From Sphaerochaetaceae bacterium (lineage in GTDB: Bacteria; Spirochaetota; Spirochaetia; Sphaerochaetales; Sphaerochaetaceae), in NCBI GenBank assembly GCA_024405015.1, contig JAKSPE010000006.1:1-64000 (forward strand): a stretch of DNA of 64,000 bases, given 5' to 3'. Under the pieces are notes generated by a model. The model was not told the DNA's origin, did not search any database, and saw only the letters and a program-made list of their open reading frames with translations. The stretch's first letter is position 1. The number at the start of each line of letters is the position of its first letter. The translations under genes and the position numbers were made by a program. This document shows positions 4,324-62,938 of this stretch, in pieces.

Positions 4324-4352
4324 TTGATACCCATAGGATTTACCGTTAGAAT
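4324..4352 (+). promoter_or_regulatory. Sigma-70 promoter giving a leaderless HAD mRNA
   Basis: TTGATA (4324-4329), a 17-nt spacer and TAGAAT (4347-4352) form a near-consensus promoter. The -10 ends 7 nt before ATG 4360, so the expected start of transcription falls on or next to the start codon and leaves no room for a Shine-Dalgarno sequence. Confidence 0.7.
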
Positions 4353-4359
4353 GAAAGCC

Positions 4360-5067
4360 ATGAAAGATTACAAGATGATCCTTTTCGATTTGGACGGCAC
4401 CCTACTTCCTATGGAGCTGGAAACCTTCATGGGAGGTTATCTCAAGAGCATCGCAACCAAAATGGCCACGTACGGCTACGAGCCTAAAACCTTGGGAGCA
4501 GCCCTTTGGGACTCGATTGCAAAGATGATGGCAAACGATGGGGCAAAGACAAACGAAGAGGTCTTCTGGGACCGTTTCTGTGAAATCTACGGAAAAGATG
4601 CCATCAAGGACAAAAAGACGATTGATGGCTTCTATCGCAACGAATTCCAGAATGTGAAGAATTACTGTGGCTTCAATCCAAAAGCATCCGAGACCGTGTA
4701 CAAACTCAAGGCGGCAGGATTTCGAGTCGCACTTGCCACAAACCCGTTCTTTCCGCAGTACGCCACCTTCAGCCGCATCCGCTGGGCAGGTCTTGAGCCT
4801 TCTGACTTTGAGCTTATCACAACCTACGAGAATTCCCATACCTGCAAACCGAACCTCTCTTATTACAAGGAAGTCCTGTCCTCACTCAACATCATGCCTT
4901 CCGAAACCTTAATGGTCGGGAACGATGCCCTGGAGGATATGATCGCCGAGGAACTCGGCATTGACGTGTTCCTTCTGACAGACTGTCTCATCAACACAAA
5001 GAACAGAGACATCTCCCAGTATCCGCAAGGAAGCTTTGACGAGCTTCTGACCTACATAGGATTGTAG
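4360..5067 (+). CDS. HAD-superfamily hydrolase
   Basis: A 235-residue haloacid-dehalogenase-type phosphatase. Motif I is ILFDLDGTLLP at the N-terminus, motif II is the ALATNP segment (around residue 128), the conserved Lys is near CKPNLSYY (about 165), and motif III/IV is MVGNDALEDMIAEELG (about 185). A helical cap lies between motifs I and II. The upstream TTG at 4324 is the -35 box rather than a start. ATG 4360 is preferred over ATG 4351 because it leaves 7 nt after the -10 element. The substrate cannot be read from sequence; the closest named types are phosphoglycolate phosphatase-like enzymes. A 46-residue membrane protein gene follows at once. Confidence 0.85.
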   Translation: MKDYKMILFDLDGTLLPMELETFMGGYLKSIATKMATYGYEPKTLGAALWDSIAKMMANDGAKTNEEVFWDRFCEIYGKDAIKDKKTIDGFYRNEFQNVKNYCGFNPKASETVYKLKAAGFRVALATNPFFPQYATFSRIRWAGLEPSDFELITTYENSHTCKPNLSYYKEVLSSLNIMPSETLMVGNDALEDMIAEELGIDVFLLTDCLINTKNRDISQYPQGSFDELLTYIGL

Positions 5068-5072
5068 TGGCT

Positions 5073-5213
5073 ATGAGAAACAAGGATATGCCAAGAAGCA
5101 CCCCGATGTGGCTTAGAGTCTCGATTCTGGTGCTTCTTTCTGCCATTTTGCTTTCTGCATTCATTGCTGCCGCTTTGGCATTGATTCACATCTGGGCCCA
5201 GACCCACATGTAA
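5073..5213 (+). CDS. 46-residue single-pass membrane protein
   Basis: A small open frame starts at ATG 5073, five bases after the HAD stop, and ends with TAA at 5211-5213. An in-frame GTG at 5067 overlaps the HAD stop and is an alternative start. The product has a short charged N-terminus (residues 1-15, Arg/Lys-rich) and one strongly hydrophobic segment of about 23 residues rich in Leu, Ala and Ile, then a short tail. It ends just before the convergent MBL gene. Its position suggests translational coupling to the phosphatase, for example as a membrane anchor or modulator; that is inference, with no family recognised. Confidence 0.55.
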   Translation: MRNKDMPRSTPMWLRVSILVLLSAILLSAFIAAALALIHIWAQTHM

Positions 5214-5216
5214 AGG

Positions 5217-6656
5217 TCATTTGGCGACAGAGACCTCGTAATCCCGTTTGGCACCGTGGGCGCCGAAGATCTGCCACTTGCCAGCACCAAGGCGCGCAAA
5301 CAGAGCCTCTCGTTCCATGGCACACATCTTCGGATCCGTATCCACCGAGGTCATGAGAATCGGAGCACATCGGTTGTACTCAGCCTGCTCGGCTGTCATG
5401 CCCTTCATGTTCACATAGACATCGCCTGTGAATGCAACCTTGTTGCCATAATCCACAAGAAGGATCTCTCCAGGAAGATGTCCACCGGCACCTTCAAACA
5501 CCTCAAAGGAAAGGTCTGCAAAGCGGAAATAGCCGATTGGTGTAATAGGATTCACACACTTGGCAGGACTCTGCCAGAGCACCTTGAGCTTTTCAGGCTT
5601 GGTTGCCTCATAGGATGTCAGGGTCTTGCAGATGCCGATGTATGGCTTATGCAGAGGGTTCTCCTCCCGAAAGCCGTTTCGGCTCTCGGCCTCAAGTCTC
5701 AGACACTGTGCAGTTCTCTCGTTCACAAGAACCTCATCAAACAGGTTCAGAAGTCCACAGTGGTCAACGTCGGCATGGGTCACAAGAACACTCTTACGAG
5801 CGGCATCGAAATCCGGGATGAGCTTTCGAAACAGCTGCAGCTGCTCCTCTTTGTAACAGGCATAGCCGGTATCGATGAAAAGATATGCGTCGCCGCTTTT
5901 CAGAATCGCCGTATTGCTTCCGCAAGGAGGCTCAATCAGAATCATGTCGACCTGCTCTGTGAGTTTGAGCTCTGTCACCCTTGCGTTGTACTGTGAGCCT
6001 TTGCTCTTGGCCAGAAGTCCTGCAAAACGGCTGATGTTGTCAAATGTTCGGTATGGGGAAAGGCCTCTCTCATCCAGAACCTGCATGGCAAGGTTCGCAT
6101 CCACCAGAAGTGCGTTTCGGCTCTCCTGTGGAAGGTCCATGTTTTTCATGAGTTCTGAGACGAAGGAGTTGTAGAAGATGCTGTTGTCATAGATCTTCTC
6201 CGAGTGGTTGTAATCGATCACACGCACACTGCAAAGGTTGGATGACTCCAGGATGAAGTTCTGGATCTTCTGCTCATCGTCCACGAAAAGGCCCATCTTG
6301 AACAGCTGATACTCGGAGCCGTTCTCCTGGGAACTGATATAGGAGATGTTGAAGTTGTACTGCTGAATCAGCTGAAGCACCTTTTCGACACTGCCAGGAA
6401 CATCCTCAAGCCGGAACTCGATGAGAACGACGCTCTTTTCCCGCTGGGCCTGTAGGTATCCGATCTCCTTGAGCATCTGGGCAGCCTTCTCATGCTGCTG
6501 CTCCGTTCCCTCGGCGTCAATGAACAGTGTGTTGCTGTCGATGGCCTTGTTGTAGCTGGTTCTTGTGATGTTCATCCCCAAGGAAGCGAAGCAGTGGCTT
6601 GCCTTGAGAAAAGCCCCAATGTAGTCAGGCATTGTCGTGACATAGGTCTTTTTCAT
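5217..6656 (-). CDS. Tandem ACT domains fused to a metallo-beta-lactamase-fold hydrolase
   Basis: A 479-residue protein. Residues about 1-70 and 75-150 look like two ACT-type ligand-binding domains (the second reads SVVLIEFRLEDVPGSVEKVLQLI). Residues about 230-475 form a metallo-beta-lactamase fold. The metal motif is VTHADVDHCG, the HxDxDH version also seen in ComEC-type domains, and is followed by a His in GAGGHLPGE, an Asp in FTGDVY and a late His in FGAHG. The gene follows a GltD-like oxidoreductase gene after 12 nt and is probably in its operon. An amino acid or related ligand could control a hydrolase; the actual substrate is unknown. Confidence 0.8.
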   Translation of the reverse strand: MKKTYVTTMPDYIGAFLKASHCFASLGMNITRTSYNKAIDSNTLFIDAEGTEQQHEKAAQMLKEIGYLQAQREKSVVLIEFRLEDVPGSVEKVLQLIQQYNFNISYISSQENGSEYQLFKMGLFVDDEQKIQNFILESSNLCSVRVIDYNHSEKIYDNSIFYNSFVSELMKNMDLPQESRNALLVDANLAMQVLDERGLSPYRTFDNISRFAGLLAKSKGSQYNARVTELKLTEQVDMILIEPPCGSNTAILKSGDAYLFIDTGYACYKEEQLQLFRKLIPDFDAARKSVLVTHADVDHCGLLNLFDEVLVNERTAQCLRLEAESRNGFREENPLHKPYIGICKTLTSYEATKPEKLKVLWQSPAKCVNPITPIGYFRFADLSFEVFEGAGGHLPGEILLVDYGNKVAFTGDVYVNMKGMTAEQAEYNRCAPILMTSVDTDPKMCAMEREALFARLGAGKWQIFGAHGAKRDYEVSVAK

Positions 6657-6668
6657 GCAACCACCCCG

Positions 6669-7985
6669 TCAGATCTTCTTCTCGCTGAAGGCATCCTCAG
6701 GTGGTGCCTCAAACACAGGGATGTCGGCATAGATGTCCTTGCCATCCTTTGGAGGCAGGCTCTTCATGTAGTTGTCCATTGCCTCTGCAACCTTCTTGGC
6801 CATGGCAACCGCCTCTACGACGGTTCTGGCACCCTGAACAGCATCGCCACCAGCAAAGACGCCCGCTCGTGTGGTGCTTCCATCGGCATCGACTGTCAGA
6901 AGTCCCTTATGGTCCATATCGATTCCCTGGGTGGTCTTGATGAGAGTGCTTTCCGCAGCCTGTCCGATGGCAACGACGATTCCGCTATGTGGATAGAACT
7001 TCTCGCTACCCTCCACCACGGTCACGTTGCCGTTCTCGTCAGTGATGGTGTCGCAGCAGACCATACCGTTGGCACGAAGCTCGACCGGCTGCTTGTTGAA
7101 GCGGAAATGAACACCTTCCAACTTGGAATAGCTGTACTCATAGCTGGAAGCCTGAATGTTGTTGCGATCGCTTCTGGAGTAGCATGTGACATATCTGGCA
7201 CCGTTTCGGACAGCGGTTCTTGCGCAGTCCATTGCAGAATTGCCGACACCGATGACCGCAATGTCATCACCCAGTCGGAAGCCTTTTGAGTTGGCAAGAT
7301 AATCGATGGCAAAAGCGACATTTCCAAGGGACTCACCCTTGATGTGCATAGCACTTGGCTTTCTCAGGCCGCTTCCGATGAACACACTGTCATAGCCGTC
7401 GCGGAACAGGTCATCGATGGTGATGGTTCTACCGATTGAGGTGTGAGGACGGACCTTGATGTCTTTCAGAATCAGGTGGCGATATTCAAAGTCGTCCAGC
7501 ACGCTGTCCGGAAGTCTGAAATTCGGGATCCCATAGCGCATGATGCCACCGATTTTGTCGCGAGCCTCGAAAATCGTCACATCATAACCCCAACGTGCAA
7601 GAAGCACGGCAATGGTAAGGCCTGCAGGGCCAGAGCCGACGATGGCAGTCTTCATGCCATTCTTAGGAGCTGGTCCCATGACCATCTTGTTTGCGAATGT
7701 TGTGGAGATGTAGTCCTCAATAATGGAGAAATGCACAGGGTCGTGGGTAGCCATTCTGTTTCGGATGCAATGGCCTTCACACTGCTTCTCGTGATTGCAC
7801 ACGATGCAGCACACTGTGGTAAGTGGATTGTTCTCAAAGAGCATGCGTCCGGCATCATCCAGTTTGCCGTCCTTCAGAAGTCGAATGACCTCCGGGATGT
7901 TCGTACCAATCGGACAACCCTTCTGACAAAGCGGATTCTTACAACCCAGACACTTGTTCGCCTCATCCAAAACATGCAAAGCCAT
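6669..7985 (-). CDS. NAD(P)H-dependent oxidoreductase, glutamate synthase small subunit-like
   Basis: A 438-residue flavoprotein of the GltD family. The N-terminal part has eight Cys in two clusters (CLGCKNPLCQKGCP and CCIVCNHEKQCEGHC) for two 4Fe-4S centres. An FAD-binding GSGPAGL follows near residue 120, an NAD(P)-binding GVGNSAMDCAR near 245, and the closing flavin motif GGDAVQGARTVVEA near 385. No glutamate synthase large subunit is in the window, so it may serve another partner, as many stand-alone GltD-like proteins do. An SD (AGGAGA) precedes the ATG and a TATACT -10 lies upstream. It heads a two-gene unit with the ACT-MBL protein. Confidence 0.88.
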   Translation of the reverse strand: MALHVLDEANKCLGCKNPLCQKGCPIGTNIPEVIRLLKDGKLDDAGRMLFENNPLTTVCCIVCNHEKQCEGHCIRNRMATHDPVHFSIIEDYISTTFANKMVMGPAPKNGMKTAIVGSGPAGLTIAVLLARWGYDVTIFEARDKIGGIMRYGIPNFRLPDSVLDDFEYRHLILKDIKVRPHTSIGRTITIDDLFRDGYDSVFIGSGLRKPSAMHIKGESLGNVAFAIDYLANSKGFRLGDDIAVIGVGNSAMDCARTAVRNGARYVTCYSRSDRNNIQASSYEYSYSKLEGVHFRFNKQPVELRANGMVCCDTITDENGNVTVVEGSEKFYPHSGIVVAIGQAAESTLIKTTQGIDMDHKGLLTVDADGSTTRAGVFAGGDAVQGARTVVEAVAMAKKVAEAMDNYMKSLPPKDGKDIYADIPVFEAPPEDAFSEKKI

Positions 7986-8057
7986 AGCAGATCTCCTATC
8001 GTATCAAGTATAGCAAATCAAAAGCGATAAAAAAACCACACAATTGCTACGCAAATG

Positions 8058-8090
8058 CAAAATACTTTCTGCACTTCCCTGGTATATGGA
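8058..8090 (+). promoter_or_regulatory. Shared upstream block, copy 1 (CAAAAT-N16-TGGTAT)
   Basis: CAAAATACTTTC begins at 8058 and TGGTATATG at 8080, exactly 22 nt later. The same arrangement recurs at 16255 and 28310. TGGTATATG can act as an extended -10 with transcription starting near 8095, but no protein gene follows here, only a hairpin terminator. Confidence 0.45.
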
Positions 8091-8094
8091 TGGT

Positions 8095-8190
8095 GAAGGC
8101 GTAAAACCCAAATCCCAATGCCTTACGTGAAGCCTGTCCGAAGCCCAGTCCCCAAGTCACAACAAAACGGACAGGCTTCCGCTTTTTTTT
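8095..8190 (+). ncRNA. Possible small RNA of about 95 nt
   Basis: The interval between the extended -10 at 8080-8088 and a strong intrinsic terminator ending at 8190 has no open frame of note. A transcript would hold a first weak hairpin (the GCGTAA around 8099 against TTACG around 8124) and then the 12-bp terminator stem. This is an inference from promoter and terminator positions alone; no known RNA family was recognised. Confidence 0.3.
8129..8190 (+). terminator. Intrinsic terminator
   Basis: A perfect 12-bp inverted repeat (8129-8140 with 8168-8179, core AGCCTGTCCG) has a 27-nt loop and is followed by CGC and eight T. No + strand protein gene precedes it, which is why a small RNA is suspected. 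Confidence 0.7.
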
Positions 8191-8268
8191 GGAGGTGTCA
8201 TGGAATGTTGATTACATCTGATTATGTTACTAAAATGATGAGAGTCACTTCCCAAGAAGGAGCAAATC

Positions 8269-9594
8269 ATGCCAATTGCAGTGAACCTGAAAAATGCATT
8301 CGTCCTTGTGTTCGTCATCGGAACAACACTTTCCTTCCTGCTGAACCATGTGCTGGAAGCCATCGACTACAAGTACAGAAAAACCAACGGCGGAATCCTG
8401 CCGGACGTTCTCAAGAAATATCCAGAAGCATCCCTGTTCGACCAGGAGAAACTCAAGCGAATCTGCGAATACGAAAACGCAAAGTACTTTCTGTGGATTC
8501 CACAGAGCATTGCAAGCTATCTGCTTGAAATGGGTCTTGTCCTGTTCGGCTTCTATGTTCTGGTCTTCAATGGCCTCGTCTCCTGGGTCGGCATGCCGAC
8601 CACCGTGGGAAAGACCTTTGTGTGCTTCTTCCTGTTCATGCTGCTCACATCACTTCCATCCGACATCCTGTCCATCCCGTTCTCCCTGTATCGCGAGTTC
8701 AAACTTGAAAAGCGATTCGGTTTCAGCAACATGACACTTAAGATCTGGATCACAGACGGTATCAAGAACATCCTCGTCTCTATGGTGCTGAACGTCATGC
8801 TCACCGGCATTGCATCACCACTTCTTGTCAGCTGCCCAAACACTTGGTGGATCATCCTCTCCGCAGTTCTTGTCGTCCTCATCTTCCTGACCAACATCAT
8901 CTACCCGAAGTTCATCGCACCGCTTTTCAACAAGTTCCAGATGCTTGAGGAAGGTGAACTCAAAACCAGACTGGAAAACATGCTGGCAAAAGCAGGATTC
9001 TCCTCTGACGGACTTTTCAGAATGGATGCCTCAAAGCGCAGCAACCACTCCAATGCCTATTTCACAGGATTCGGAAAAGCAAAGAGAATCGTTTTGTATG
9101 ATACGCTGATCAACGCCATGACCGTCGATGAGATTGAGTCCGTCATGGCCCATGAAGTCGGTCACTACAAGCTCAAGCACATCACAAGACGCATGGTTCT
9201 CATGTTCCCTCTTGTCATTGTCGCAAGTTTTGTCATGTTCACACTGGCCCATGTCAGTGCTCTTTACACCGGTTTCGGATTTGAGGTTACAAACATCAAT
9301 GCCATGCAGTTTGTCGGTCTTCAGCTTGCCATCATGGTGTTCTCAAGCATCTCCTTCCCGCTCAAACCGGTCACAAGCTACGCTTCCCGTAGACATGAAT
9401 ATGCCGCAGACCGATTCTCGGCAGAGCTTTGCCATACCGGAAAGCCTCTCGTTTCAGCGCTCATGAAGCTCAACAGTGAGAACCTTTCAGAGATTCTCCC
9501 GCCGAAGATCTACTCCTTCTACCACTACTCCCATCCGACACTGGTTGAAAGGACCATGGCACTGGAGGAACTCGAAAAGAGTCTTGAAAAATGA
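8269..9594 (+). CDS. M48 family metalloprotease, Ste24/CAAX prenyl protease 1-like
   Basis: A 441-residue membrane-bound zinc protease. Several transmembrane segments lie in the first 220 residues and two more near 305-365. The zinc site is HEVGHYKLKH (HExxH, about residue 295), with the third ligand in the EYAADRFSAEL stretch (about 378). RSNHSNAYFTGFGKAKRIVLYDTL is the conserved strand before the active site, as in Ste24-type enzymes. Bacterial members act in membrane protein quality control. An SD (AAGGAG) lies 7 nt before the ATG. The gene stands alone and ends at a strong terminator. Confidence 0.92.
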   Translation: MPIAVNLKNAFVLVFVIGTTLSFLLNHVLEAIDYKYRKTNGGILPDVLKKYPEASLFDQEKLKRICEYENAKYFLWIPQSIASYLLEMGLVLFGFYVLVFNGLVSWVGMPTTVGKTFVCFFLFMLLTSLPSDILSIPFSLYREFKLEKRFGFSNMTLKIWITDGIKNILVSMVLNVMLTGIASPLLVSCPNTWWIILSAVLVVLIFLTNIIYPKFIAPLFNKFQMLEEGELKTRLENMLAKAGFSSDGLFRMDASKRSNHSNAYFTGFGKAKRIVLYDTLINAMTVDEIESVMAHEVGHYKLKHITRRMVLMFPLVIVASFVMFTLAHVSALYTGFGFEVTNINAMQFVGLQLAIMVFSSISFPLKPVTSYASRRHEYAADRFSAELCHTGKPLVSALMKLNSENLSEILPPKIYSFYHYSHPTLVERTMALEELEKSLEK

Positions 9595-9604
9595 TTGAAA
9601 ATCA

Positions 9605-9639
9605 GGGGTTGTGACAGAAATCTGTTGCAACCCCTTTTT
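9605..9639. terminator. Intrinsic terminator between convergent genes
   Basis: A 7-bp stem (GGGGTTG 9605-9611 with CAACCCC 9628-9634) is followed by TTTTT. It ends the protease transcript. Confidence 0.8.
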
Positions 9640-9662
9640 CATCTGTTTTGGATACACTCCGA

Positions 9663-10151: not shown

Positions 10152-10271
10152 AACAGTCCCTCTTGTCCAAATGATAGCGCCCTAGGACTGCAAGAACAAG
10201 CGCTCTACCATAAGTAGGTTGCCTTTTCGGCAAGCCATCCATATGATTTCAGCTGTAAACAGGAGACGACT

Positions 10272-10904: not shown

Positions 10905-10905
10905 A

Positions 10906-12287: not shown

Positions 12288-12309
12288 TTTCATACTCCCC
12301 AATCCCAGA

Positions 12310-16042: not shown

Positions 16043-16071
16043 ATTATAAACAAAATTCGCCGTCCTGTAAT
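16043..16071 (-). promoter_or_regulatory. vsr promoter, leaderless type
   Basis: On the minus strand ATTACA (16071-16066), a 17-nt spacer and TATAAT (16048-16043) are followed by 6 nt (CAGCTT) and then the GTG start codon. The -35 lies inside the first, partial copy of the 42-bp repeat array. Confidence 0.6.
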
Positions 16072-24743: not shown

Positions 24744-24916
24744 AATATATAAGCCTCCTAGTTACCACCTTACAACGTGAATTTTCAGAAGTAAAGAATT
24801 ATTTTTACATTTTTTTGATAAGTTTTTTTCTTATTTTTGCAAGTTTCAACCTATAATTTGCATATTTTATGATAATTTGCCTTTATTTCCCTGTAAAATG
24901 CCACTATAATCAGGCT
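24744..24916. promoter_or_regulatory. Divergent control region of the sugar operon and its regulator
   Basis: A 173-bp AT-rich stretch between the aldolase and DeoR genes. ATAATTTGC occurs twice in direct orientation (24853-24861 and 24872-24880), 19 nt apart, and is a candidate operator. TATAAT at 24905-24910 lies 6 nt before the DeoR ATG at 24917, implying a leaderless regulator mRNA. No clear -35 is seen for it. Confidence 0.55.
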
Positions 24917-32740: not shown

Positions 32741-32746
32741 TACTAT
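32741..32746 (+). promoter_or_regulatory. -10 element 6 nt before the MATE start
   Basis: TACTAT lies exactly 6 nt before ATG 32753 and no Shine-Dalgarno is present. No good -35 is seen. Confidence 0.5.
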
Positions 32747-35781: not shown

Positions 35782-36596
35782 CAGGCATTCTCCTTGGCAG
35801 GAGGCATCTGTACATCCACATCAAGCTTGATGGTCTGGATTTCCGTGGTCTTTCCGGTCACTTCATCAATGGTGCAAAGAAGTCCCTGCATTTGAGGCTT
35901 CTCCCAGCTTTCGTGCGAGCGGGTCTGGACCTGTGTTCGGAACTTTCGGATCTCATGGTCCGGCTCGAAACCACCAACACTGACACTGGCTCCGCATCTG
36001 CCGAGGTCGGTGATGTAGGCAGTTCCACCATCAAGAATCTGAGCATCTGCCGTAAGAGCCTTGCAATGGGTTCCGACGACGGCACTCACCTTCCCTTTCA
36101 GAAGATGTCCCATGGTCAGCTTCTCAGCAGTTGCAGAAGCGTGGAACACATAAAGGACAATCGGAGTCTCAGCCTTTGCCTTCTCGCAGATGACCTCTGC
36201 AGAAAGGAACGGATTGTTCAGATGTGGGTTTGTGAAGTTGCACATGCCAAGAGTATTGATGATGCAGACCTTATGCTCTCCGACATTCAGGTATCTGAGA
36301 CCTCGACCTGGAACGGTCTCCGGATAGTTGGCAGGTCTGAGGATGTTACCGCGCTTGGCGATTCCCTCGACCATATCAATCTTGAAGAAGGATTTTTCTC
36401 CCATGGTCAGGACATCAATGCCCATGTGCTGCAAAGCGATCGCATTCTGAAAACCAAGTCCGAATCCGCCTGTAGCACCCTCGCCGTTTGCGATGACCAG
36501 ATCAATGTCGTTGTCACGTCGATAGCTTTTGAGGGCATTCTTGATGACCCCAATACCACAGCGACCTACAATCTCACCTAAGAAAAGTACCTTCAT
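35781..36596 (-). CDS. YmdB/TIGR00282-family protein with altered metal-binding site
   Basis: A 271-residue protein clearly related to YmdB phosphodiesterase through the whole fold (MKVLFLGEIVGRCG, NILRPANYPETVPGRG, FHASATAEKL, GTAYITDLGRCG). Several metal ligands of the family are replaced: GD of the first motif is GE, NGEN is NGEG, GNH is GEK and GTHTH is GTHCK. The fold is kept but the dimetal site is probably lost or changed, which suggests a pseudo-enzyme or a binding role. ATG 36596 is the natural start. It is divergent from lptC and overlaps rseC by one base. Confidence 0.88.
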   Translation of the reverse strand: MKVLFLGEIVGRCGIGVIKNALKSYRRDNDIDLVIANGEGATGGFGLGFQNAIALQHMGIDVLTMGEKSFFKIDMVEGIAKRGNILRPANYPETVPGRGLRYLNVGEHKVCIINTLGMCNFTNPHLNNPFLSAEVICEKAKAETPIVLYVFHASATAEKLTMGHLLKGKVSAVVGTHCKALTADAQILDGGTAYITDLGRCGASVSVGGFEPDHEIRKFRTQVQTRSHESWEKPQMQGLLCTIDEVTGKTTEIQTIKLDVDVQMPPAKENA

Positions 36597-36625
36597 ACCT
36601 GCAAATTTATCTATCTTTCTACTAC

Positions 36626-36654
36626 TTTGCAATAGCAATCATTCATTGTATATT
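36626..36654 (+). promoter_or_regulatory. lptC promoter, leaderless type
   Basis: TTGCAA (36627-36632), a 16-nt spacer and TATATT (36649-36654) are followed by 6 nt and ATG 36661. Confidence 0.6.
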
Positions 36655-36660
36655 TAACGC

Positions 36661-37182
36661 ATGAAAGCCAAACGCATGGCATACTTATTGCTAGTAGCTC
36701 TGATTCTGTCCGTCTCATGCAGCAGAAACGCAAGTTCAACGATACCAATCGGAGAACAGGAACTGCCTGACATGGTCATGGCAGATGCCCTTTATGTGCT
36801 GGGTCAGCCAGAGGAGAAACCTCTGTCTCTTAAAGCACAGAAGATCACCATCTGGTCATCGCAGCGGGGCACTATGCTTGAGAATGTAAGCTTTGAGCGG
36901 TCCGATGAGTTCAGCGGAAGCTGCACCAATGCCGTGATCCGAAGCGATTCCCGTCATGCGGTCCTTTCAGGCGATGTCCTCATTCACCAGAATGCCGATG
37001 ACATCACCATAATGACCCAGAGCATTGTCTGGGACCAGGACACCGAATCCTTCACTTGTGACGGAGAGGTAACCATGCAGTATGGCCAGGGAACCACGCT
37101 TAAGGCTTTGGGTTTCTATGCCAAGTTTGATGAAGGACTTTATGAGTTCGCCCAGATTCTGGAAGGAAGGATGTCAGAATGA
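36661..37182 (+). CDS. lptC: LPS export periplasmic protein LptC-like lipoprotein
   Basis: A 173-residue predicted lipoprotein: a hydrophobic N-terminus with lipobox SVSC (Cys20), then a beta-rich body of repeated strands (LSLKAQKITIW, VSFERSDEFSGSCTNAVI, SRHAVLSGDVLI, QSIVWDQDTESFTCDGEVTM) of the LptC/OstA type. E. coli LptC keeps a membrane helix instead of a lipid anchor. Identity rests on this fold together with the overlapping lptA and lptB genes downstream. It carries lipopolysaccharide or a similar glycolipid from the inner membrane toward LptA. Confidence 0.8.
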   Translation: MKAKRMAYLLLVALILSVSCSRNASSTIPIGEQELPDMVMADALYVLGQPEEKPLSLKAQKITIWSSQRGTMLENVSFERSDEFSGSCTNAVIRSDSRHAVLSGDVLIHQNADDITIMTQSIVWDQDTESFTCDGEVTMQYGQGTTLKALGFYAKFDEGLYEFAQILEGRMSE

Positions 37183-47744: not shown

Positions 47745-47773
47745 TTGATTTATTGTCATATTAATGGTAGAAT
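47745..47773 (+). promoter_or_regulatory. Promoter of the E2-like gene
   Basis: TTGATT (47745-47750), a 17-nt spacer and TAGAAT (47768-47773) are followed by 8 nt and ATG 47782. An earlier in-frame ATG at 47764 overlaps the -10 and is less likely to be used. Confidence 0.65.
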
Positions 47774-49682: not shown

Positions 49683-49688
49683 ATCATA
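49683..49688 (-). promoter_or_regulatory. -10 element 7 nt before the rsmE start
   Basis: On the minus strand TATGAT (49688-49683) is followed by 7 nt and ATG 49675, with no SD. The -35 is weak. Confidence 0.45.
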
Positions 49689-51656: not shown

Positions 51657-52376
51657 TCAGTGTCCCTCCTTAAGATCCTGGGCGTATGTGATTTTGCTGT
51701 TGCTCTTGCTCCCCTGCACAAAGGCCACCTTTTTGCCGAAGTCCATAAAGATCTCTGTGTCATCGGTATAGGCCTTACCCGCTATGGCCGCACAGTGTGC
51801 GTCATAGATGTCCGGGAAACGGAAAGACTGCGGCGTCTGGACGGTGCACACACCTTCGCGGCTGAGTCTTCCACATAAAAAGCCATCCTTATCAACCTGC
51901 ACAAGAGTATCGGTCATACGGATGCAAGGACAGGCGCCACCATGCTGAAAAGCTGCATTGATACAGCTAGACACAAGAGCCTTGTCTACATAAGGTCTGG
52001 CACCATCATGGATGCTGACAATATCAATGGCAAGTTCTTGTGCCATATCATTTAAAGCAGAAAGTGCATGGAAGACTGAAGCCTGTCTGGTATCACCGCC
52101 TTTCACATACAGAACTTTGACATCCGACAGGTTTGTAAGGACTGCTGACTGATCGATCAGAGCCTTTACCGCCTCAAGGTCACCATCGCGGTAAGTCACC
52201 ACGACTGCAACCAAACCAGGCACCTGAGTAAACGGAGCGATTGCCCTACATAATACAGGCATTTCACCGATAGTGAGAAATTCCTTTTTGACCGGATTCT
52301 TGGCGTCAGAGGACTCGTTGAATCTGCGAGACGATCCCGCAGCTGTCACAATCACTGCATGGCGCAATGGCATCAT
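51657..52376 (-). CDS. ispD: 2-C-methyl-D-erythritol 4-phosphate cytidylyltransferase
   Basis: A 239-residue CTP-dependent transferase. The nucleotide-binding loop is AVIVTAAGSSRRF followed by KKEFLTIGEMPVL, with VKGGDTRQASVFHAL, IHDGARPYVD, VQTPQSFRF and the DDTEIFMDFGKKVAFVQGSKSNSKIT end block. It acts just before IspE and IspF. ATG 52376 and 52373 are both possible; the second overlaps the carD stop as TGATG. It lies between carD and ispF in one transcript. Confidence 0.94.
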   Translation of the reverse strand: MMPLRHAVIVTAAGSSRRFNESSDAKNPVKKEFLTIGEMPVLCRAIAPFTQVPGLVAVVVTYRDGDLEAVKALIDQSAVLTNLSDVKVLYVKGGDTRQASVFHALSALNDMAQELAIDIVSIHDGARPYVDKALVSSCINAAFQHGGACPCIRMTDTLVQVDKDGFLCGRLSREGVCTVQTPQSFRFPDIYDAHCAAIAGKAYTDDTEIFMDFGKKVAFVQGSKSNSKITYAQDLKEGH

Positions 52377-52873
52377 TTCTCCAAATGAGAGAAGATGGTC
52401 TTTTCAATCTCTTTCTTGTCCTTGTTCAGGGCATAGGAACATTCGTCAATGAGAAGGCTCAGAGCATTGTCATAGAGCTTTCTTTCCTGAACCGGAAGCT
52501 CCTTGACCTTGCTTCTGTGATAGAGACCCTGTACGACCTTGGCAATGGAATTGATGGAACCTTCCTTGATGAGGTCAACATTCATCTGGTAACGGGCCTT
52601 CCAATCAACGGAGACAGGCTCGTACTTGCTGGAGATGATATCAAGTGCCTTGAGGGCCTCGGCTTCAGATACGATGGCACGAACACCGGAATCCTCAACC
52701 TTCTCAACAGGGATGCTAACAGTCATGTCAGACATGTCAATGTAGATGACGTAATACAGGACTGGAACGTTGCGAACGGTGCGCTCTCTGATGTCCTTTA
52801 CGACACCAACTCCCTGAAGAGGATAAACTACATGTTCACCGATTTTGAATTGAAGCTGCTTATCTGAAGTCAT
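52373..52873 (-). CDS. carD: CarD/CdnL-family transcription factor
   Basis: A 166-residue regulator. The N-terminal RNA-polymerase-interacting Tudor-like domain reads FKIGEHVVYPLQGVGVVKDI and YYVIYIDMSDMTVSIPVEKVEDSGVR. The C-terminal helical DNA-contacting domain spans about 85-160 (WKARYQMNVDLIKEGS, ERKLYDNALSLLIDECSYA). CarD stabilises promoter opening, typically at rRNA promoters. It heads a carD-ispD-ispF transcript, an order also known from mycobacteria. TATAAT lies exactly 6 nt before ATG 52873 with no SD. Confidence 0.93.
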   Translation of the reverse strand: MTSDKQLQFKIGEHVVYPLQGVGVVKDIRERTVRNVPVLYYVIYIDMSDMTVSIPVEKVEDSGVRAIVSEAEALKALDIISSKYEPVSVDWKARYQMNVDLIKEGSINSIAKVVQGLYHRSKVKELPVQERKLYDNALSLLIDECSYALNKDKKEIEKTIFSHLEK

Positions 52874-52879
52874 GGTCTC

Positions 52880-52908
52880 ATTATACCCCAAAATTGGGCA
52901 CTGAACAA
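52880..52908 (-). promoter_or_regulatory. carD promoter, leaderless type
   Basis: On the minus strand TTGTTC (52908-52903), a 17-nt spacer and TATAAT (52885-52880) are followed by GAGACC and ATG 52873. It is the clearest of the leaderless-type promoters here. Confidence 0.75.
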
Positions 52909-54607: not shown

Positions 54608-54742
54608 GTTTGCCATTACACCCACATCGAATGAAAGCTGCAGAAGGACAACTGTTGCTCAAAGTTGCACAAAAGCCTTTTTTCCCTGCCCTTTTATCGA
54701 AAACCGAATTGACACTAAATCATATAATTGAGATGCTATGGC

Positions 54743-55318: not shown

Positions 55319-55319
55319 C

Positions 55320-56867: not shown

Positions 56868-56875
56868 CAAACAGA

Positions 56876-56905
56876 AAACTGACTCGAAAGGGTCAGTTTT
56901 TTTAT
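56876..56905 (+). terminator. Intrinsic terminator
   Basis: The stem AAACTGAC (56876-56883) with GTCAGTTT (56892-56899) continues into a T run. It ends the xpt-guaA transcript. Confidence 0.88.
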
Positions 56906-56966
56906 CCCCAAGCCAGACGGAATCGGTTATCATGAAAGCCAGGCATGAAACGTTTAGGAGAACCAC

Positions 56967-57686: not shown

Positions 57687-57804
57687 AAACGGACAAGCCT
57701 TCAAATCTTTTCCAAACCTGCAGCTTTTTCATAATAGCCAAAGCATTTTCACTTACTGTTTTAATTTTCTTTTACTGTTCGTTACTGTTTATCAACCCCA
57801 AACC

Positions 57805-57843
57805 AAAGAAAAGGCCGCCTAGGAGAATTTCCCAAGCGGCCTT
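57805..57843 (-). terminator. Intrinsic terminator of the phosphatase gene
   Basis: The stem AAGGCCGC (57811-57818) with GCGGCCTT (57836-57843) is followed on the minus strand by TTTTCTTTGG. Confidence 0.8.
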
Positions 57844-57861
57844 GTTTGTCTTTCAAATGTG

Positions 57862-59391
57862 TCAGCGGTTTTTCTTGTTGACGCTGAGGCTGTCATACTG
57901 GATGCCATCGCTTCCATAGACATCCAAAGTGATGGCCTGTGGTGTCACGGAGACAACGACGAATCCGGATCCCTTCTCACCAACGTAGAAAGCACAGCGA
58001 TTTCCGGTCAGCTCAGGACGGTTCACAATGGCCTTCTCCTCCTGATACTCGGTGATCGGGCTTGTCATGTAAACGGTGCCATCCTCTGCAACCTGGTCAC
58101 CATACAAGGTGTAGCTTCTGCTGTAGGTGTGGGTGTCTGATGCAAGAACAAGATCAACTCTGCACTTGTCCATGACCGGTGCCCAGAACTCATAGGCGCC
58201 AGTTCCGCTGTTTTCACCCTCGAGCATGGAGTAATGCTGGGAAACGATGATGTAGTCGTACTTGCCCTTGTTTGCCTCGACAACGGATTCAAGCCAGATG
58301 CGCTCCATCTCCAACGTCTCCCGATTGGCATAGTTCATGGTTCCGTCATCCTCACGTCCGATGGAATCCAGACAGATGAACAGAACGTTCTCATAAAGGA
58401 ACCAGTAGTTGCTGTCGAGGACATCAGCGTCATCGTCAGGAACGGCAACCATATCAAGATAGTAGGCGCTGGTATCCATGTTCTTCTTACCAGCAGGATA
58501 GTACTCATGGTTTCCGACCAAGAAGGCGAACATGTTTCTGTGAAGTCTGTCACTGCTCTGCCAGTTGAACCAGTTGTTGTAGATCTGTCCCTTGTTGACC
58601 ATGTCGCCGGAGAACAGGACAAAGTTGATATCCTGGCCAAGGATTGCATTGGCACGATCGATTGCGGTGTCGACATTGAAAATCAGTGGATTGTTGGCCT
58701 GTGTGTGGTTATCACTGAGCCACAGGAAATGGAAGGTTCCATCAGAGCCTGCAGTCTTGAAGGTTCCAGCTTCGGAGACGCTACCGTCCGCATTCTTGAC
58801 TCTGTACTGGTAAGTGCTATCCGGCTCAAGGCCCTCGAGTTCGATGCGATAGCGGTAATAGCTTGTGCCGTCATTCCATTCCAGTGTGTTCTTGTTGCAG
58901 GCAACAGCGATTGTCTGCGTGAACTGCGTTGAGTTGGCATCTGTGAGCTCAAGCACACAATCTGGGTTCTGGCTATGCCATGAGATGGTCTGGCTGGTAG
59001 AGCTGTCATGACCCGGACCTGCCATGAGCCAGTTTGCCTGGCGGCTTGGGAATACGGTGATGACAGCAGAGGTCTTCTTGGTAGGGTCCTGGACCGATGA
59101 GACCTGGACCTGAACAGTCTCGGTCTTGTCGGAAGAATCAAGAAGATGGACGGTTCCATCTGGATCGATTGCGACGACATCCGGATTGCTGCTTTCAAAG
59201 ACAACAGCCTTGTTTTCAGCAGTTCCATTGACGGTCACACCCAGTTTGATTGTATCAGGGGCATACAGATACATGGTGTATTTGTCAAGTTTGACGCCAG
59301 TTACAGTTCCCTGGTCCTTTGCGGTTGCACAGGAAACCAGAAGTGAAATCACCAAAACGGCACATGCCATGACGATACAGATTCTTCTCAT
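57862..59391 (-). CDS. Lipoprotein with Ig-like, purple-acid-phosphatase N-terminal and metallophosphoesterase domains
   Basis: A 509-residue predicted surface or periplasmic lipoprotein (lipobox LVSC, Cys21). A BIG2-type Ig-like domain spans about 30-110, a fibronectin-like PAP N-domain about 115-205, then a metallophosphoesterase. Metal ligands lie in FLWLSDNHT, LFSGDMVNKG, VGNHEYY, IIVSQHYSM and LASDTHTYSRSY. The last motif is usually GHxHxYxR; its first His is Asp here. It probably releases phosphate from external esters. GGAAAAGA before ATG is SD-like. TTACTGTT repeats lie on both sides of the gene. Confidence 0.85.
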   Translation of the reverse strand: MRRICIVMACAVLVISLLVSCATAKDQGTVTGVKLDKYTMYLYAPDTIKLGVTVNGTAENKAVVFESSNPDVVAIDPDGTVHLLDSSDKTETVQVQVSSVQDPTKKTSAVITVFPSRQANWLMAGPGHDSSTSQTISWHSQNPDCVLELTDANSTQFTQTIAVACNKNTLEWNDGTSYYRYRIELEGLEPDSTYQYRVKNADGSVSEAGTFKTAGSDGTFHFLWLSDNHTQANNPLIFNVDTAIDRANAILGQDINFVLFSGDMVNKGQIYNNWFNWQSSDRLHRNMFAFLVGNHEYYPAGKKNMDTSAYYLDMVAVPDDDADVLDSNYWFLYENVLFICLDSIGREDDGTMNYANRETLEMERIWLESVVEANKGKYDYIIVSQHYSMLEGENSGTGAYEFWAPVMDKCRVDLVLASDTHTYSRSYTLYGDQVAEDGTVYMTSPITEYQEEKAIVNRPELTGNRCAFYVGEKGSGFVVVSVTPQAITLDVYGSDGIQYDSLSVNKKNR

Positions 59392-59513
59392 TCTTTTCCT
59401 CCCAAAAACGGATCTTTACCCATTACTGTTGTATCATAGGTTTTGCCACCTGTGTGCTTTTTCTCCATATTTTTTATTTCGTTTAGTGATAGCCAAGGGA
59501 CGCCAGTTCCCAA

Positions 59514-59519
59514 TATAGT
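59514..59519 (+). promoter_or_regulatory. -10 element 6 nt before the DUF362 start
   Basis: TATAGT is followed by GAAACC and ATG 59526. No SD and no clear -35. Confidence 0.5.
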
Positions 59520-59525
59520 GAAACC

Positions 59526-60635
59526 ATGTCAGATAAAAGCAAAGTCTATTTCACAGATCTCAGAACCGGTTTCAACAACACACTCATCGATAAGTTGAAT
59601 CGCCTCATGAAAAGCGCAGGAATCGAGACCATCGACTTCAAGGACAAGTACTGTGCCATCAAGATGCACTTCGGAGAGCTTGGAAACCTGGCCTTCCTAC
59701 GACCAAACTGGGCCAAGTGTGTTGCCGACGAAGTCAAGAGCCTTGGCGGAAAGCCATTTCTGACAGACTGCAACACGCTTTATGTCGGAAGCAGAAAAAA
59801 CGGACTTGACCACCTGGATGCCGCCTATCAGAACGGATTCTCCCCGCTTTCCACAGGATGCCATGTGATCATCGCAGATGGAATCAAGGGAAATGACGAG
59901 GTCGAGGTTCCTGTTGACGGCAACTACGTGAAAAACGCAAAGATCGGCAGAGCCATCATGGACGCCGATGTCTTTATCAGTCTTGCCCATTTCAAGGGTC
60001 ATGAAGCAACAGGTTTCGGAGGAGCACTCAAGAACGTGGGAATGGGATGCGGTTCCAGAGCCGGCAAGATGGAGCAGCACAGCCAGGGTAAGCCGACCGT
60101 CATTCAGGAGAACTGCATCGGATGCGGCATGTGTGCAAAGATCTGTGCCCATCAGGCACCAGTGATCAAGGACAGAAAGTGCACCATTGACCACACCAAG
60201 TGCGTCGGTTGCGGCCGCTGTATCGCCATTTGCCCAAAGGATGCCGTCGATGCCGACTACGGCAATGGCTCTGAGGCCCTCAACTGCAGAATGATGGAGT
60301 ACACAAAGGCCGTCGTCCAGGGAAGACCAGCGTTTTACATCAACATCGCCATTGACATCTCCCCAAACTGTGACTGCCACTCCGAGAACGATCTTGCCAT
60401 TGTTCCAAACGTAGGACTTTTCGCATCGTTTGACCCGGTAGCCATCGACCAGGCCTGTGCCGATGCCGTGAACCGCATGCCGATCGTTCCAGGTTCCGCC
60501 CTTGACCATGCCGAGCATCATCACCATGACCACATCATGGACAACCATCCGGACACAAACTACAAGCAGGGTCTGGAGTACGCACAGTCCATTGGTCTTG
60601 GAAGCAGAGATTATGAGCTGATTACCGTCAGATAA
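59526..60635 (+). CDS. DUF362 protein with two 4Fe-4S ferredoxin motifs
   Basis: A 369-residue protein. The DUF362 core (about 1-180, with KMHFGELGNLAFLRPNWAK and LTDCNTLYVGSRKN) is followed by two ferredoxin clusters, CIGCGMCAKICAHQAP (about 195) and CVGCGRCIAICPKDAV (about 223), then NIAIDISPNCDCHSEND. DUF362 proteins are common in anaerobes and are thought to move electrons; no reaction is established. A His-rich stretch (EHHHHDHIMD) near the C-terminus may bind metal. A terminator follows. Confidence 0.9.
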   Translation: MSDKSKVYFTDLRTGFNNTLIDKLNRLMKSAGIETIDFKDKYCAIKMHFGELGNLAFLRPNWAKCVADEVKSLGGKPFLTDCNTLYVGSRKNGLDHLDAAYQNGFSPLSTGCHVIIADGIKGNDEVEVPVDGNYVKNAKIGRAIMDADVFISLAHFKGHEATGFGGALKNVGMGCGSRAGKMEQHSQGKPTVIQENCIGCGMCAKICAHQAPVIKDRKCTIDHTKCVGCGRCIAICPKDAVDADYGNGSEALNCRMMEYTKAVVQGRPAFYINIAIDISPNCDCHSENDLAIVPNVGLFASFDPVAIDQACADAVNRMPIVPGSALDHAEHHHHDHIMDNHPDTNYKQGLEYAQSIGLGSRDYELITVR

Positions 60636-60656
60636 TCGTAATCCGGAAATCTCAAA

Positions 60657-60694
60657 GGGAAACTGTAGCAATAATTACAGTTTCCTTTTTTTTG
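60657..60694 (+). terminator. Intrinsic terminator
   Basis: A 10-bp perfect stem (GGAAACTGTA 60658-60667 with TACAGTTTCC 60676-60685) is followed by nine T. Confidence 0.92.
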
Positions 60695-60762
60695 TCAAAA
60701 AAGACTTTATTTCCTACTGTATTCTTTGTTACACTTCATACCGTTGAAAAAGGAGAAAGACT

Positions 60763-61530
60763 ATGTGGAAGACACCTAACCAGTATTTTGGAACACTTCA
60801 CATCATTTCAATCGTTGTCATGCTCTGCTGTGCAGCATGTGGCGTTTATCTTGGCATCAAGTACAAGGATGCCAAATATGACAAGAAAAAAGACAAGGCA
60901 ATGTCCATCCTCGGATTCACATTCGTCGCACTTGAAGCTTTCAAGATCATCTTCAGAGTTGCCAACAAGGCTGGTGCTAACGTAACACTGATTTCCTTCC
61001 AGATCTGTTCCATCCCACTTTGGCTCCTGCCATGGATTGCCTACATGAAGGAAGGCAAGCTCAAGAAGTCCTTCATCGGTTTCGTTTCCTTCCAGAGTTT
61101 CACAGCAGCATTCTTCTTCTTTGTAAAGCCAGCTGCCATCGTCATGCAGGAATCCAACTACGGCTACATCATCATGTCCATGCACTCCCTGCTCTGGCAC
61201 TGCCTCATGGTCGCCAGCGGCCTGTTCGCCATGGTTGCCTACAGACTCCTTACCAAGGAAGGCTTCAAGACTCTGGTCTACAGCTACATCCTCTGGGTCA
61301 TCTGTGCAGTCGTCGCCATGGTCCTGAACCTCATCATCGGTTACCCACTGGACCTCTTCTCCATCGCACCATCAACAAGTTTCTCCTACCCACTTCTTGG
61401 TGTGTTCTTCAAGAGTCCAAGTCCATATCCAGTGTACTTCATCAGCTTCCTGATCTACTACGGTCTGGGTGGACTGATCATCTACGGCCTTGGATTCGGA
61501 ATCACAAAGCTTGCTACAAAGAAAAAGTAA
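60763..61530 (+). CDS. YwaF/TIGR02206-family integral membrane protein
   Basis: A 255-residue membrane protein with about seven helices. YFGTLHIISIVVMLCCAAC at the N-terminus, the FQICSIPLWLLPW segment and the SMHSLLWHCLMVASG His motif match the YwaF (TMEM164-like) family, whose function is not established. The helices are mostly Phe/Ile/Leu-rich, with short basic loops (KYDKKKDK) on the inner side. A strong SD (AAGGAG) precedes ATG and a terminator follows. Confidence 0.82.
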   Translation: MWKTPNQYFGTLHIISIVVMLCCAACGVYLGIKYKDAKYDKKKDKAMSILGFTFVALEAFKIIFRVANKAGANVTLISFQICSIPLWLLPWIAYMKEGKLKKSFIGFVSFQSFTAAFFFFVKPAAIVMQESNYGYIIMSMHSLLWHCLMVASGLFAMVAYRLLTKEGFKTLVYSYILWVICAVVAMVLNLIIGYPLDLFSIAPSTSFSYPLLGVFFKSPSPYPVYFISFLIYYGLGGLIIYGLGFGITKLATKKK

Positions 61531-61552
61531 ATCACATAGAATTAAGAGAGTT

Positions 61553-61585
61553 AAAGGTCGCATCTTCGGGTGCGACCTTTTATTT
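61553..61585 (+). terminator. Intrinsic terminator
   Basis: The stem AAAGGTCGCA (61553-61562) with TGCGACCTTT (61571-61580) has a TCTTCGGG-type loop and is followed by TTATTTT. Confidence 0.9.
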
Positions 61586-61630
61586 TCTGCATGTGGCAGC
61601 AACCCCTTCTAGAGAAGCCCTGTTAACCGC

Positions 61631-61636
61631 TATACT
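61631..61636 (+). promoter_or_regulatory. -10 element 6 nt before the NhaC start
   Basis: TATACT is followed by ACAGCC and ATG 61643. No SD. The -35 is weak. Confidence 0.5.
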
Positions 61637-61642
61637 ACAGCC

Positions 61643-62938
61643 ATGGGAACTGCAATCTCCTTTGTCCTTTTCTTCGCGACTCTTCTCTTTACCCTCATCC
61701 GAGGCATCTCTGTCGTCTGGGCAATTGGTGTTGCACTTCTTGCATTCTCCGTCTCCGCCATAGCCTCCGGCACCCCGACAAAGAAGGTTCTGGGCTATGC
61801 TTGGGCGGAAATCCCGAAAGCCATGATTGTCGTAAGGGTTCTCATCTGTGTCGGAATCCTCACAGGTCTTCTTCGTGGAAGCGGAACAATTGCAGCCTTC
61901 GTGTATGCTGGAACAAGTCTCATTCCCAAAAGGCTCTTCCTTCTGACCGTCTTTCTGATTTGCGTCGCCCTCTCCTACGTTCTAGGCTCATCCTTTGCCG
62001 TCACAGGAACCGCAGGTGTCATTTTCATGGCCTTTGCCCGAACAGGTGGTGTGAACCCAGCCATCGTTGCAGGAGCGGTGCTCTCCGGTGTCTATTTCGG
62101 AGACCGTGGAGCCCCAACGTCCTCATGCCTTAGCCTGGTTTCCGTCATTACCGGCACCGATACGCTACAGAACTCAAAGCGTATCCAGCGCATCTCCTTT
62201 CCCGCATACCTTGTCATCATTGCCCTGTATGCAGGGCTCTCCTTCGCAAACCCTCTTATGCAGGTCGATGAGAGCATTCTCCATGCAATGGAAAGCACCT
62301 TCCGCATCACATGGGTTACCGCGATTCCTGCACTGATTGTTGTGATTCTGCCGCTTTTCAAACTCAGAATCTGGAAATCCATGCTGCTGGGAGCCCTGGC
62401 AGCACTGGTCATTGCCGTAGGATATCAGCACTACACACTACTACAGTCCGTCGGTTTCATGCTCTGGGGCTTTGTCACAGAGACCGAACTCAGCAGCCTG
62501 AACGGAGGAGGCATCGTCTCCATGAAGACAGCCATCATCCTGGTGCCACTAGCTTCCATGCTTTCGGGAGTTCTGGAAGGAACAAAGGTCCTGGACAAGG
62601 CAACCGCAAAGGCATCAGAGCTTGCAAAGAGAATCGGAAAGCTTCCGGCCATGCTCGCAGTTTCGGTGCTCTCTGCCATGGTCTTCTGCAACCAGACCGT
62701 CTGCGTGATGCTTTCCCGCCAGATGCTTCAAAGTGCCTACACAGACGGCTCCGAGATGGCAATGGACATTTCCCATACCTCGTCTCTGATTGCCGCCATG
62801 GTTCCATGGTCCATCGCCTGCTCCATTCCACTTGCGCTGCTTGGTGTGGGCTACAGCGCCATGCTGTTTGCCTTTCTTGTGTACCTGGTTCCCATCTACT
62901 ACACGCTTTTCAAGAAGAGACTTCTCAAAAGCAGATGA
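61643..62938 (+). CDS. NhaC-family Na+/H+ antiporter
   Basis: A 431-residue membrane protein with eleven or twelve helices. VGILTGLLRGSGTIAAFVYAG, GSSFAVTGTAGVIFMAFA and the VYFGDRGAPTSSCLSL motif match NhaC-type exchangers, as does the VFCNQTVCVMLSRQML stretch late in the protein. It should exchange Na+ (or a dicarboxylate or amino acid pair, as in malate-lactate antiporters of this family) against H+. Single gene, with a leaderless-type start and no SD. Confidence 0.88.
   Translation: MGTAISFVLFFATLLFTLIRGISVVWAIGVALLAFSVSAIASGTPTKKVLGYAWAEIPKAMIVVRVLICVGILTGLLRGSGTIAAFVYAGTSLIPKRLFLLTVFLICVALSYVLGSSFAVTGTAGVIFMAFARTGGVNPAIVAGAVLSGVYFGDRGAPTSSCLSLVSVITGTDTLQNSKRIQRISFPAYLVIIALYAGLSFANPLMQVDESILHAMESTFRITWVTAIPALIVVILPLFKLRIWKSMLLGALAALVIAVGYQHYTLLQSVGFMLWGFVTETELSSLNGGGIVSMKTAIILVPLASMLSGVLEGTKVLDKATAKASELAKRIGKLPAMLAVSVLSAMVFCNQTVCVMLSRQMLQSAYTDGSEMAMDISHTSSLIAAMVPWSIACSIPLALLGVGYSAMLFAFLVYLVPIYYTLFKKRLLKSR

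What the first reader, a model, noticed from the sequence alone, without database searches (positions are those of the whole stretch)
4324..61645. Recurrent leaderless-type promoters: a -10 hexamer 6-8 nt before the start codon and no Shine-Dalgarno
Seen directly: TATAAT-6-GTG (vsr, 16036), TATAAT-6-ATG (DeoR 24917; carD 52873), TACTAT-6 (MATE 32753), TATATT-6 (lptC 36661), TATCAT-6 (SplB-like 46492), TATAGT-6 (DUF362 59526), TATACT-6 (NhaC 61643), TAGAAT-7 (HAD 4360), TATGAT-7 (rsmE 49675) and TAGAAT-8 (E2-like 47782). Several also have a -35 at 16-18 nt (TTGATA, TTGTTC, TTGTTG, TTGATT, TTGCAA). A -10 that close puts the transcription start on the start codon. Nearly all are first or only genes of their transcript. 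Other genes in the window keep strong SDs. A mixed system like this is well known in Actinobacteria and Deinococcus; I am not aware of it as a described trait in spirochaetes.
Basis: partly seen in the sequence, partly recalled or inferred. Interest (0 to 1): 0.78.

Follow-up and report, generated by a model that had tools for sequence, protein, structure and literature searches.

The report
Leaderless gene starts in a spirochaete
In the sampled part of this spirochaete genome roughly one gene in twelve to fifteen is estimated to have a promoter signal so close to its start codon that its messenger RNA is predicted to begin at the start codon itself, a way of starting genes already reported in other spirochaetes.

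Summary
All 11 hexamers and spacings are present. In 864 kb of the 2.03 Mb genome, TANNNT is over-represented 6-7 nt before starts: 96 of 708 genes, against 37-49 expected, about 7-9% of genes. A stricter set holds 74 of 757 genes against a decoy mean of 8.9. Hits have more -35 elements and fewer SDs than decoys. Close relatives and a Deinococcus control show the peak; 66 Firmicutes loci do not.

The novelty claim fails: leaderless genes were predicted in Spirochaetes in 2011 (PMC3160421), mapped in Leptospira interrogans in 2017 (PMC5243855) and called frequent in Borrelia (PMC10618245).

New here: the trait in this lineage; carD with such a promoter in 39 of 48 usable class loci but 1 of 24 outside the class; and divergent lptC and ymdB promoters placed around one self-complementary -35 (TTGCAA) in 9 of 10 same-genus loci, own included. 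The DUF362 element is not kept in relatives. No 5' ends are mapped, so leaderless transcription and translation remain inferred.

The parts
52880..52885 (-). -10 TATAAT of carD (start 52873), spacing 6; -35 TTGTTC 17 nt upstream
   Evidence: TATAAT in all 11 same-genus loci, own included (10 at 6 nt, 1 at 7 nt); TANNNT at 6-9 nt in 39 of 48 usable class loci
52373..52873 (-). carD (RNA polymerase-binding regulator)
   Evidence: PF02559 and PF21095
36649..36654 (+). -10 TATATT of lptC (start 36661), spacing 6
   Evidence: a -10 at 6-7 nt in 10 of 10 same-genus loci, own included
36627..36632 (.). TTGCAA, self-complementary, placed as -35 for both lptC (+) and ymdB-like (-)
   Evidence: both sides present in 9 of 10 same-genus loci, own included
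   Evidence: YmdB PF13277 aligns from residue 4
36661..37182 (+). lptC
   Evidence: PF06835
35781..36596 (-). ymdB-like gene
   Evidence: PF13277 E 2.1e-80
4347..4352 (+). -10 TAGAAT of HAD hydrolase gene (start 4360), spacing 7; -35 TTGATA
   Evidence: both relatives found in 30 genomes (39% identity) have TANNNT 6 nt before the start and TTGAC as -35
49683..49688 (-). -10 TATGAT of rsmE (start 49675), spacing 7
   Evidence: TANNNT at 6-7 nt in 7 of 9 same-genus relatives and at 6-8 nt in 5 of 8 other same-family relatives
47768..47773 (+). -10 TAGAAT of E2-like gene (start 47782), spacing 8; -35 TTGATT
   Evidence: TANNNT at 7-9 nt in 5 of 5 same-genus relatives at 66-73% identity
46480..46485 (+). 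-10 TATCAT of SplB-like gene (start 46492), spacing 6; -35 TTGTTG
   Evidence: TANNNT at 6 nt in 6 of 7 usable same-genus loci (4 of 11 loci lacked the start region)
32741..32746 (+). -10 TACTAT of MATE transporter gene (start 32753), spacing 6
   Evidence: TANNNT at 6-7 nt in 4 of 7 same-genus relatives
24905..24910 (+). -10 TATAAT of DeoR regulator gene (start 24917), spacing 6
   Evidence: conservation not tested
16043..16048 (-). -10 TATAAT of vsr (GTG start 16036), spacing 6
   Evidence: Vsr domain aligns from residue 1; conservation not tested
59514..59519 (+). -10 TATAGT of DUF362 ferredoxin-like gene (start 59526), spacing 6
   Evidence: not kept: only a weak TANNNT in 1 of 8 relatives (53-66% identity) and 1 of 13 named spirochaete loci (73-75%); SD-like words in 6 of 8 and 12 of 13
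61631..61636 (+). -10 TATACT of Na+/H+ antiporter gene (start 61643), spacing 6
   Evidence: only distant relatives (28-29% identity) found, not tested

Best explanation
These are likely sigma-70-type promoters whose -10 hexamer ends 6-7 nt before the start codon, so transcription likely begins on or within a base or two of the start codon and the mRNA would be leaderless. RNA polymerase with its housekeeping sigma factor would bind the -35 (TTGNNN) and -10 (TANNNT) and initiate on the A or G of the start codon; the 70S ribosome with initiator tRNA would then start on the 5'-terminal AUG without an SD contact. Shown: positions, excess, -35 enrichment, SD depletion and conservation. Inferred: promoter activity, transcription start, leaderless mRNA and mode of translation. 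It is a minority system (about 7-9% of sampled genes) beside a normal SD system. Of the nine window genes checked in relatives, the most widely conserved element is that of carD; inside the genus or family lptC with ymdB, rsmE, SplB-like, E2-like and HAD follow.
For: Position-specific excess: 96 of 708 genes at 6 or 7 nt vs 37-49 expected; bootstrap 8.6% (6.0-11.2) with the local null or 6.7% (4.2-9.4) with the far null. Features not used to pick hits: -35 in 60% of 96 hits vs 27-38% of decoys; SD of 4 or more matches in 15% vs 41-58%; pyrimidine at -1 in 84 of 96 vs 61-67% of decoys. Strict set 74 of 757 vs decoy pairs mean 8.9, range 5-16. Same method: D. radiodurans plasmid MP1 (150 of 177 kb) 8 of 129 vs 0.2; 13 named spirochaete loci 25 of 226 vs 3.1; G018 12 of 164 vs 1.0; G012 19 of 369 vs 2.6; 66 Firmicutes loci 13 of 978 vs 11.6. 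carD: 39 of 48 usable class loci vs 7-10 in decoy windows; 1 of 24 usable outside the class. HAD: both relatives at 39% identity keep TTGAC and a -10 at 6 nt. rsmE, SplB-like, E2-like. Some domains begin within 4 residues of the proposed start (peptidyl-tRNA hydrolase, formate-THF ligase; YmdB).
Against: No 5' ends are mapped. Spacings of 7-9 (rsmE, HAD, E2-like, many carD relatives) may mean leaders of 1-3 nt. The DUF362 element is not kept in relatives and NhaC could not be tested; some of the 11 may be chance. First place in the transcript does not separate hits from decoys. Gene starts come from my own simple caller. Away from the family the signal is weak: strict hits 11 of 176, 9 of 183 and 7 of 181 vs 2.2, 2.4 and 1.2; in the looser test with ATG starts G024 is not significant (P 0.20), and with all three start codons none of the three is (G023 P 0.063, G024 0.45, G025 0.073) while same-family G012 is borderline (P 0.050). 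G025 shows no excess for the tighter hexamer (1 vs 1.3). 9 of 48 usable class carD loci lack the element, among them both examined members of one family.
Confidence: 0.88

Rival explanations
1. The elements are ordinary promoters that start transcription a few bases upstream of, or just inside, the proposed start, so the mRNAs carry a 1-3 nt leader or use a slightly different start and are ultra-short-leadered rather than strictly leaderless.
For: 27 of 74 strict hits have spacing 7; many carD relatives have spacing 8-9.
Against: 47 of 74 strict hits have spacing exactly 6, which puts the usual start on the A of ATG; several domains begin at or near that ATG.
Confidence: 0.08
2. AT-rich, unstructured sequence before SD-less starts mimics a -10 and reflects mRNA accessibility or S1 binding, not a promoter.
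For: PMC5397173 raises the AT-rich/S1 alternative for non-SD genes (passages).
Against: The excess sits at 6-7 nt, with a -35 at 16-18 nt; the -10 and part of the -35 of carD and lptC are invariant in the aligned same-genus loci while nearby bases vary (10 and 8 loci).
Confidence: 0.03
3. Chance matches in AT-rich intergenic DNA, selected by eye.
For: TANNNT is common: about 24 of 708 genes at any one distance; DUF362's element is not kept in relatives.
Against: Decoy distances and 66 Firmicutes loci give no excess; conservation of carD, lptC, ymdB, HAD, rsmE, SplB-like.
Confidence: 0.01

Closest known systems
Leaderless mRNAs of Leptospira interrogans (PMC5243855, abstract and passages seen)
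   Same: Spirochaete; about 440 genes with start sites within 10 nt of the start codon, 170-184 exactly on it, beside SD genes
   Different: Mapped by dRNA-seq; its abstract says motifs other than sigma-54 were not found, whereas here TANNNT with TTGNNN is clear; Leptospira is another lineage of the phylum (recalled)
TA-led (leaderless) genes of bacteria, Zheng et al. 2011 (PMC3160421, passages seen)
   Same: Same signal: TANNNT about 12 bp before the start; Spirochaetes listed with 6 of 18 genomes, 1.8-6.9%
   Different: Here about 7-9% in a lineage not named in the passages I saw; conservation of individual promoters shown
Leaderless systems of Deinococcus-Thermus and Actinobacteria
   Same: Same geometry; D. 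radiodurans MP1 gave the same peak in my test
   Different: Lower share here than the averages of 39% and 19% given for those groups in PMC3160421
Bacterial bidirectional promoters (PMC12825309, PMC10268837, passages seen)
   Same: One symmetric core element serves RNA polymerase in two orientations
   Different: Those share the -10, with start sites 7-25 bp apart; lptC/ymdB would share a self-complementary -35, back to back, both leaderless

Membership tests
Bacterial leaderless (TA-led) genes | -10-like TANNNT about 12 bp before the start, position-specific | tested here: met
   96 of 708 vs 37-49 expected
Bacterial leaderless (TA-led) genes | No Shine-Dalgarno at the same start | tested here: met
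   SD of 4 or more matches in 15% of 96 hits vs 41-58% of decoys
Bacterial leaderless (TA-led) genes | Transcription start coincides with the start codon | not testable with these tools
   no transcript data
Bacterial leaderless (TA-led) genes | Translation from a 5'-terminal AUG/GUG | not testable with these tools
   no ribosome profiling or N-terminal proteomics
Sigma-70 promoter | -35 TTGNNN at 16-18 nt from the -10 | tested here: met
   -35-like hexamer (TTG, or 4 of 6 to TTGACA) in 60% of 96 hits vs 27-38% of decoys
Known shared-(-10) bidirectional promoter | Overlapping -10 elements, start sites 7-25 bp apart | tested here: not met
   lptC/ymdB start codons are 64 nt apart with separate -10s and one TTGCAA between; start sites themselves unmapped

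The most novel reading that the evidence does not exclude
In this genus lptC and ymdB are driven back to back by two leaderless promoters that share a single self-complementary -35 hexamer (TTGCAA), so that polymerase bound for one gene excludes the other: a bidirectional promoter built on the -35 rather than the -10. With it goes a leaderless or nearly leaderless carD conserved across most of the class, whose product acts on promoter opening itself.
Probability: 0.5. Interest if true: 0.55.

Novelty: new member of a known kind. Interest (0 to 1): 0.42.

Why it matters
It extends leaderless expression, mapped in Leptospira and stated for Borrelia, to a further spirochaete lineage, with a recognisable -10/-35 and with housekeeping genes in the set (leucyl- and cysteinyl-tRNA synthetase, peptidyl-tRNA hydrolase, signal peptidase II, FtsK). 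Gene callers that expect an SD could misplace such starts. carD gives one gene on which the switch between SD-led and leaderless expression could be dated on the spirochaete tree, and lptC/ymdB is a compact test case for two promoters competing for one -35.

Tried and rejected

First-in-transcript as evidence: rejected, because decoy hits show the same placement (58 of 63 vs 65 of 72). The neighbour counts of the strict set printed are wrong (a script identity error made genes their own neighbours); replace them. The window list is unaffected.

Loss of S1 as the cause: near-full-length rpsA matches occur in 6 of 10 same-genus genomes; G000 itself shows only one S1-domain match, but it is 85% complete. 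Not pursued.

The distribution outside the class therefore rests on carD alone: 25 of the 106 outside-class genomes with a match, of which 18 loci were my pick and 7 came automatically. Inside the class, 3 of the 27 genomes other than G000 matched were not examined; they belong to the family whose two examined members lack the element. Three class loci and one outside locus had no usable start and were dropped before the counts. In the carD column profile the one same-genus locus with spacing 7 was left out, and in the lptC profile two loci were.

Divergent pairs with both starts leaderless: 9 candidate combinations among 115 divergent pairs in the own sample. Their gaps vary; no general rule of a shared -35 emerged. 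That scan did not itself pick up lptC/ymdB, because my caller set the lptC start too far downstream.

Conservation was examined for 9 of the 11 genes: informative for 8, not for NhaC; vsr and DeoR not tried. Whether carD is leaderless in other phyla was not checked; the listing shows CarD papers that mention leaderless mRNAs, which I did not open.

Full report
Observation. The window belongs to a 2.03 Mb, 48-contig, 85% complete genome. The best matches of its DUF362 protein among named genomes include Bullifex porci and Candidatus Ornithospirochaeta; NCBI places Bullifex in Spirochaetota, class Spirochaetia. Pfam supports the names: Vsr, DeoR, CarD, MatE, LptC, a weak spore-photoproduct-lyase match, Na+/H+ antiporter, HAD, RNA methyltransferase, 2-oxoacid dehydrogenase acyltransferase, DUF362.

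Is it more than chance? With a simple coding-potential gene caller, and without fixing one start per gene, I counted genes having TA...T at each distance before any plausible ATG. Of 708 genes, 55 have it at 6 nt and 41 at 7 nt (96 different genes), against a mean of 24.3 at each of 14-51 nt and about 18 at neighbouring distances. Bootstrap gives 8.6% (6.0-11.2) or 6.7% (4.2-9.4) of genes, depending on the null. The hits differ from decoys in features not used to choose them: -35 in 60% versus 27-38%, SD in 15% versus 41-58%, pyrimidine at -1 in 84 of 96 versus 61-67%. A strict set that adds those features has 74 of 757 genes, decoy pairs averaging 8.9.

Controls. The same script gives a peak at 6 nt in Deinococcus radiodurans plasmid MP1 (11 of 120 vs about 1.7; 150 of its 177 kb) and none in 66 Firmicutes loci fetched around a DUF362 gene (13 strict hits of 978 vs 11.6). 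Thirteen named spirochaete loci (25 of 226 vs 3.1), G018 (12 of 164 vs 1.0) and G012 (19 of 369 vs 2.6) of the same family show it. Three genomes of other families in the class show it weakly (11 of 176, 9 of 183 and 7 of 181, vs 2.2, 2.4 and 1.2); in the looser test with all three start codons none of the three reaches P 0.05 and G012 is borderline (P 0.050), and G025 has no excess of the tighter hexamer.

Result that does not help. 65 of 72 strict hits are first in their transcript by neighbour geometry versus 407 of 642 other genes (P 1.3e-6), but decoy hits are too (58 of 63), so this is not independent evidence.

Conservation. carD: TANNNT 6-9 nt before a plausible start in 39 of 48 usable class loci, versus 7-10 in decoy windows of equal width; an SD-like word in 4 of 48. 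Outside the class 1 of 24 usable loci has the -10 and 15 of 24 an SD-like word. All 11 same-genus loci have TATAAT, 10 at 6 nt and one at 7 nt. Spacings of 8-9 in parts of the class would leave leaders of 2-3 nt. lptC: a -10 at 6-7 nt in 10 of 10 same-genus loci, own included. HAD: both relatives found, at 39% identity, keep TTGAC and a -10 at 6 nt. rsmE: 7 of 9 same-genus and 5 of 8 other same-family relatives; SplB-like: 6 of 7 usable same-genus loci; E2-like: 5 of 5, at 7-9 nt. MATE: 4 of 7. The DUF362 gene is the counter-example: a weak TANNNT in 1 of 8 and 1 of 13 relatives, SD-like words in 6 of 8 and 12 of 13. NhaC had only distant relatives. vsr and DeoR were not tested.

A side finding. 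The ymdB-like gene (start 36596, minus strand) is a further candidate. It faces away from lptC (start 36661). The 64 nt between them hold one TTGCAA, which reads the same on both strands, 17 nt from the ymdB -10 and 16 nt from the lptC -10. Both sides are present in 9 of 10 same-genus loci (own included), with spacers of 17 (ymdB) and 16-17 (lptC) and both -10s 6-7 nt from ATG. Described bidirectional promoters share the -10 with start sites 7-25 bp apart (PMC12825309, PMC10268837; passages). I saw no shared -35 in those passages; my only search on this was, so absence from print is not claimed.

Mechanism. Inferred: sigma-70 holoenzyme starts transcription on the start codon and 70S ribosomes start on the 5'-terminal AUG. 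The strict set includes FtsK, a Lon-like protease, leucyl- and cysteinyl-tRNA synthetases, peptidyl-tRNA hydrolase, signal peptidase II and formate-THF ligase (20 of the 74 scanned, 17 of them with a Pfam match; 10 window members), so the route would serve housekeeping genes.

What is known. My searches found no paper joining 'leaderless' with 'Sphaerochaeta', and only one, unrelated by its abstract, joining 'leaderless mRNA' with 'Treponema'. Only an open-licence library was searched.

Verdict. Real, well supported in silico, and a new member of a known kind; the carD and lptC/ymdB promoters are its most useful test cases.

Noticed in passing
window 36596-36661: lptC and ymdB-like genes diverge from a 64-nt region with one self-complementary TTGCAA placed as -35 for both leaderless-type promoters; both sides present in 9 of 10 same-genus loci, own included.
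   Followed up: partly
window 59526-60635: The DUF362 gene has a leaderless-type promoter here, while most relatives have SD-like words instead; the protein is also 64-71% identical to many Firmicutes homologues, so horizontal transfer is possible.
   Followed up: no
L297, L298 (G005, G006): Two same-genus genomes lack the rsmE -10, possibly because rsmE there follows another gene closely; not checked.
   Followed up: no
G000 versus same-genus genomes: Near-full-length ribosomal protein S1 was found in 6 of 10 same-genus genomes but only one S1-domain match in G000; probably an assembly gap.
   Followed up: partly
L134:6058-6113, L058:6292-6346, L211:9829-9885: Divergent gene pairs 53-55 nt apart with TANNNT at 6 nt on both sides, so each promoter's -35 would lie inside the other's spacer.
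   Followed up: no
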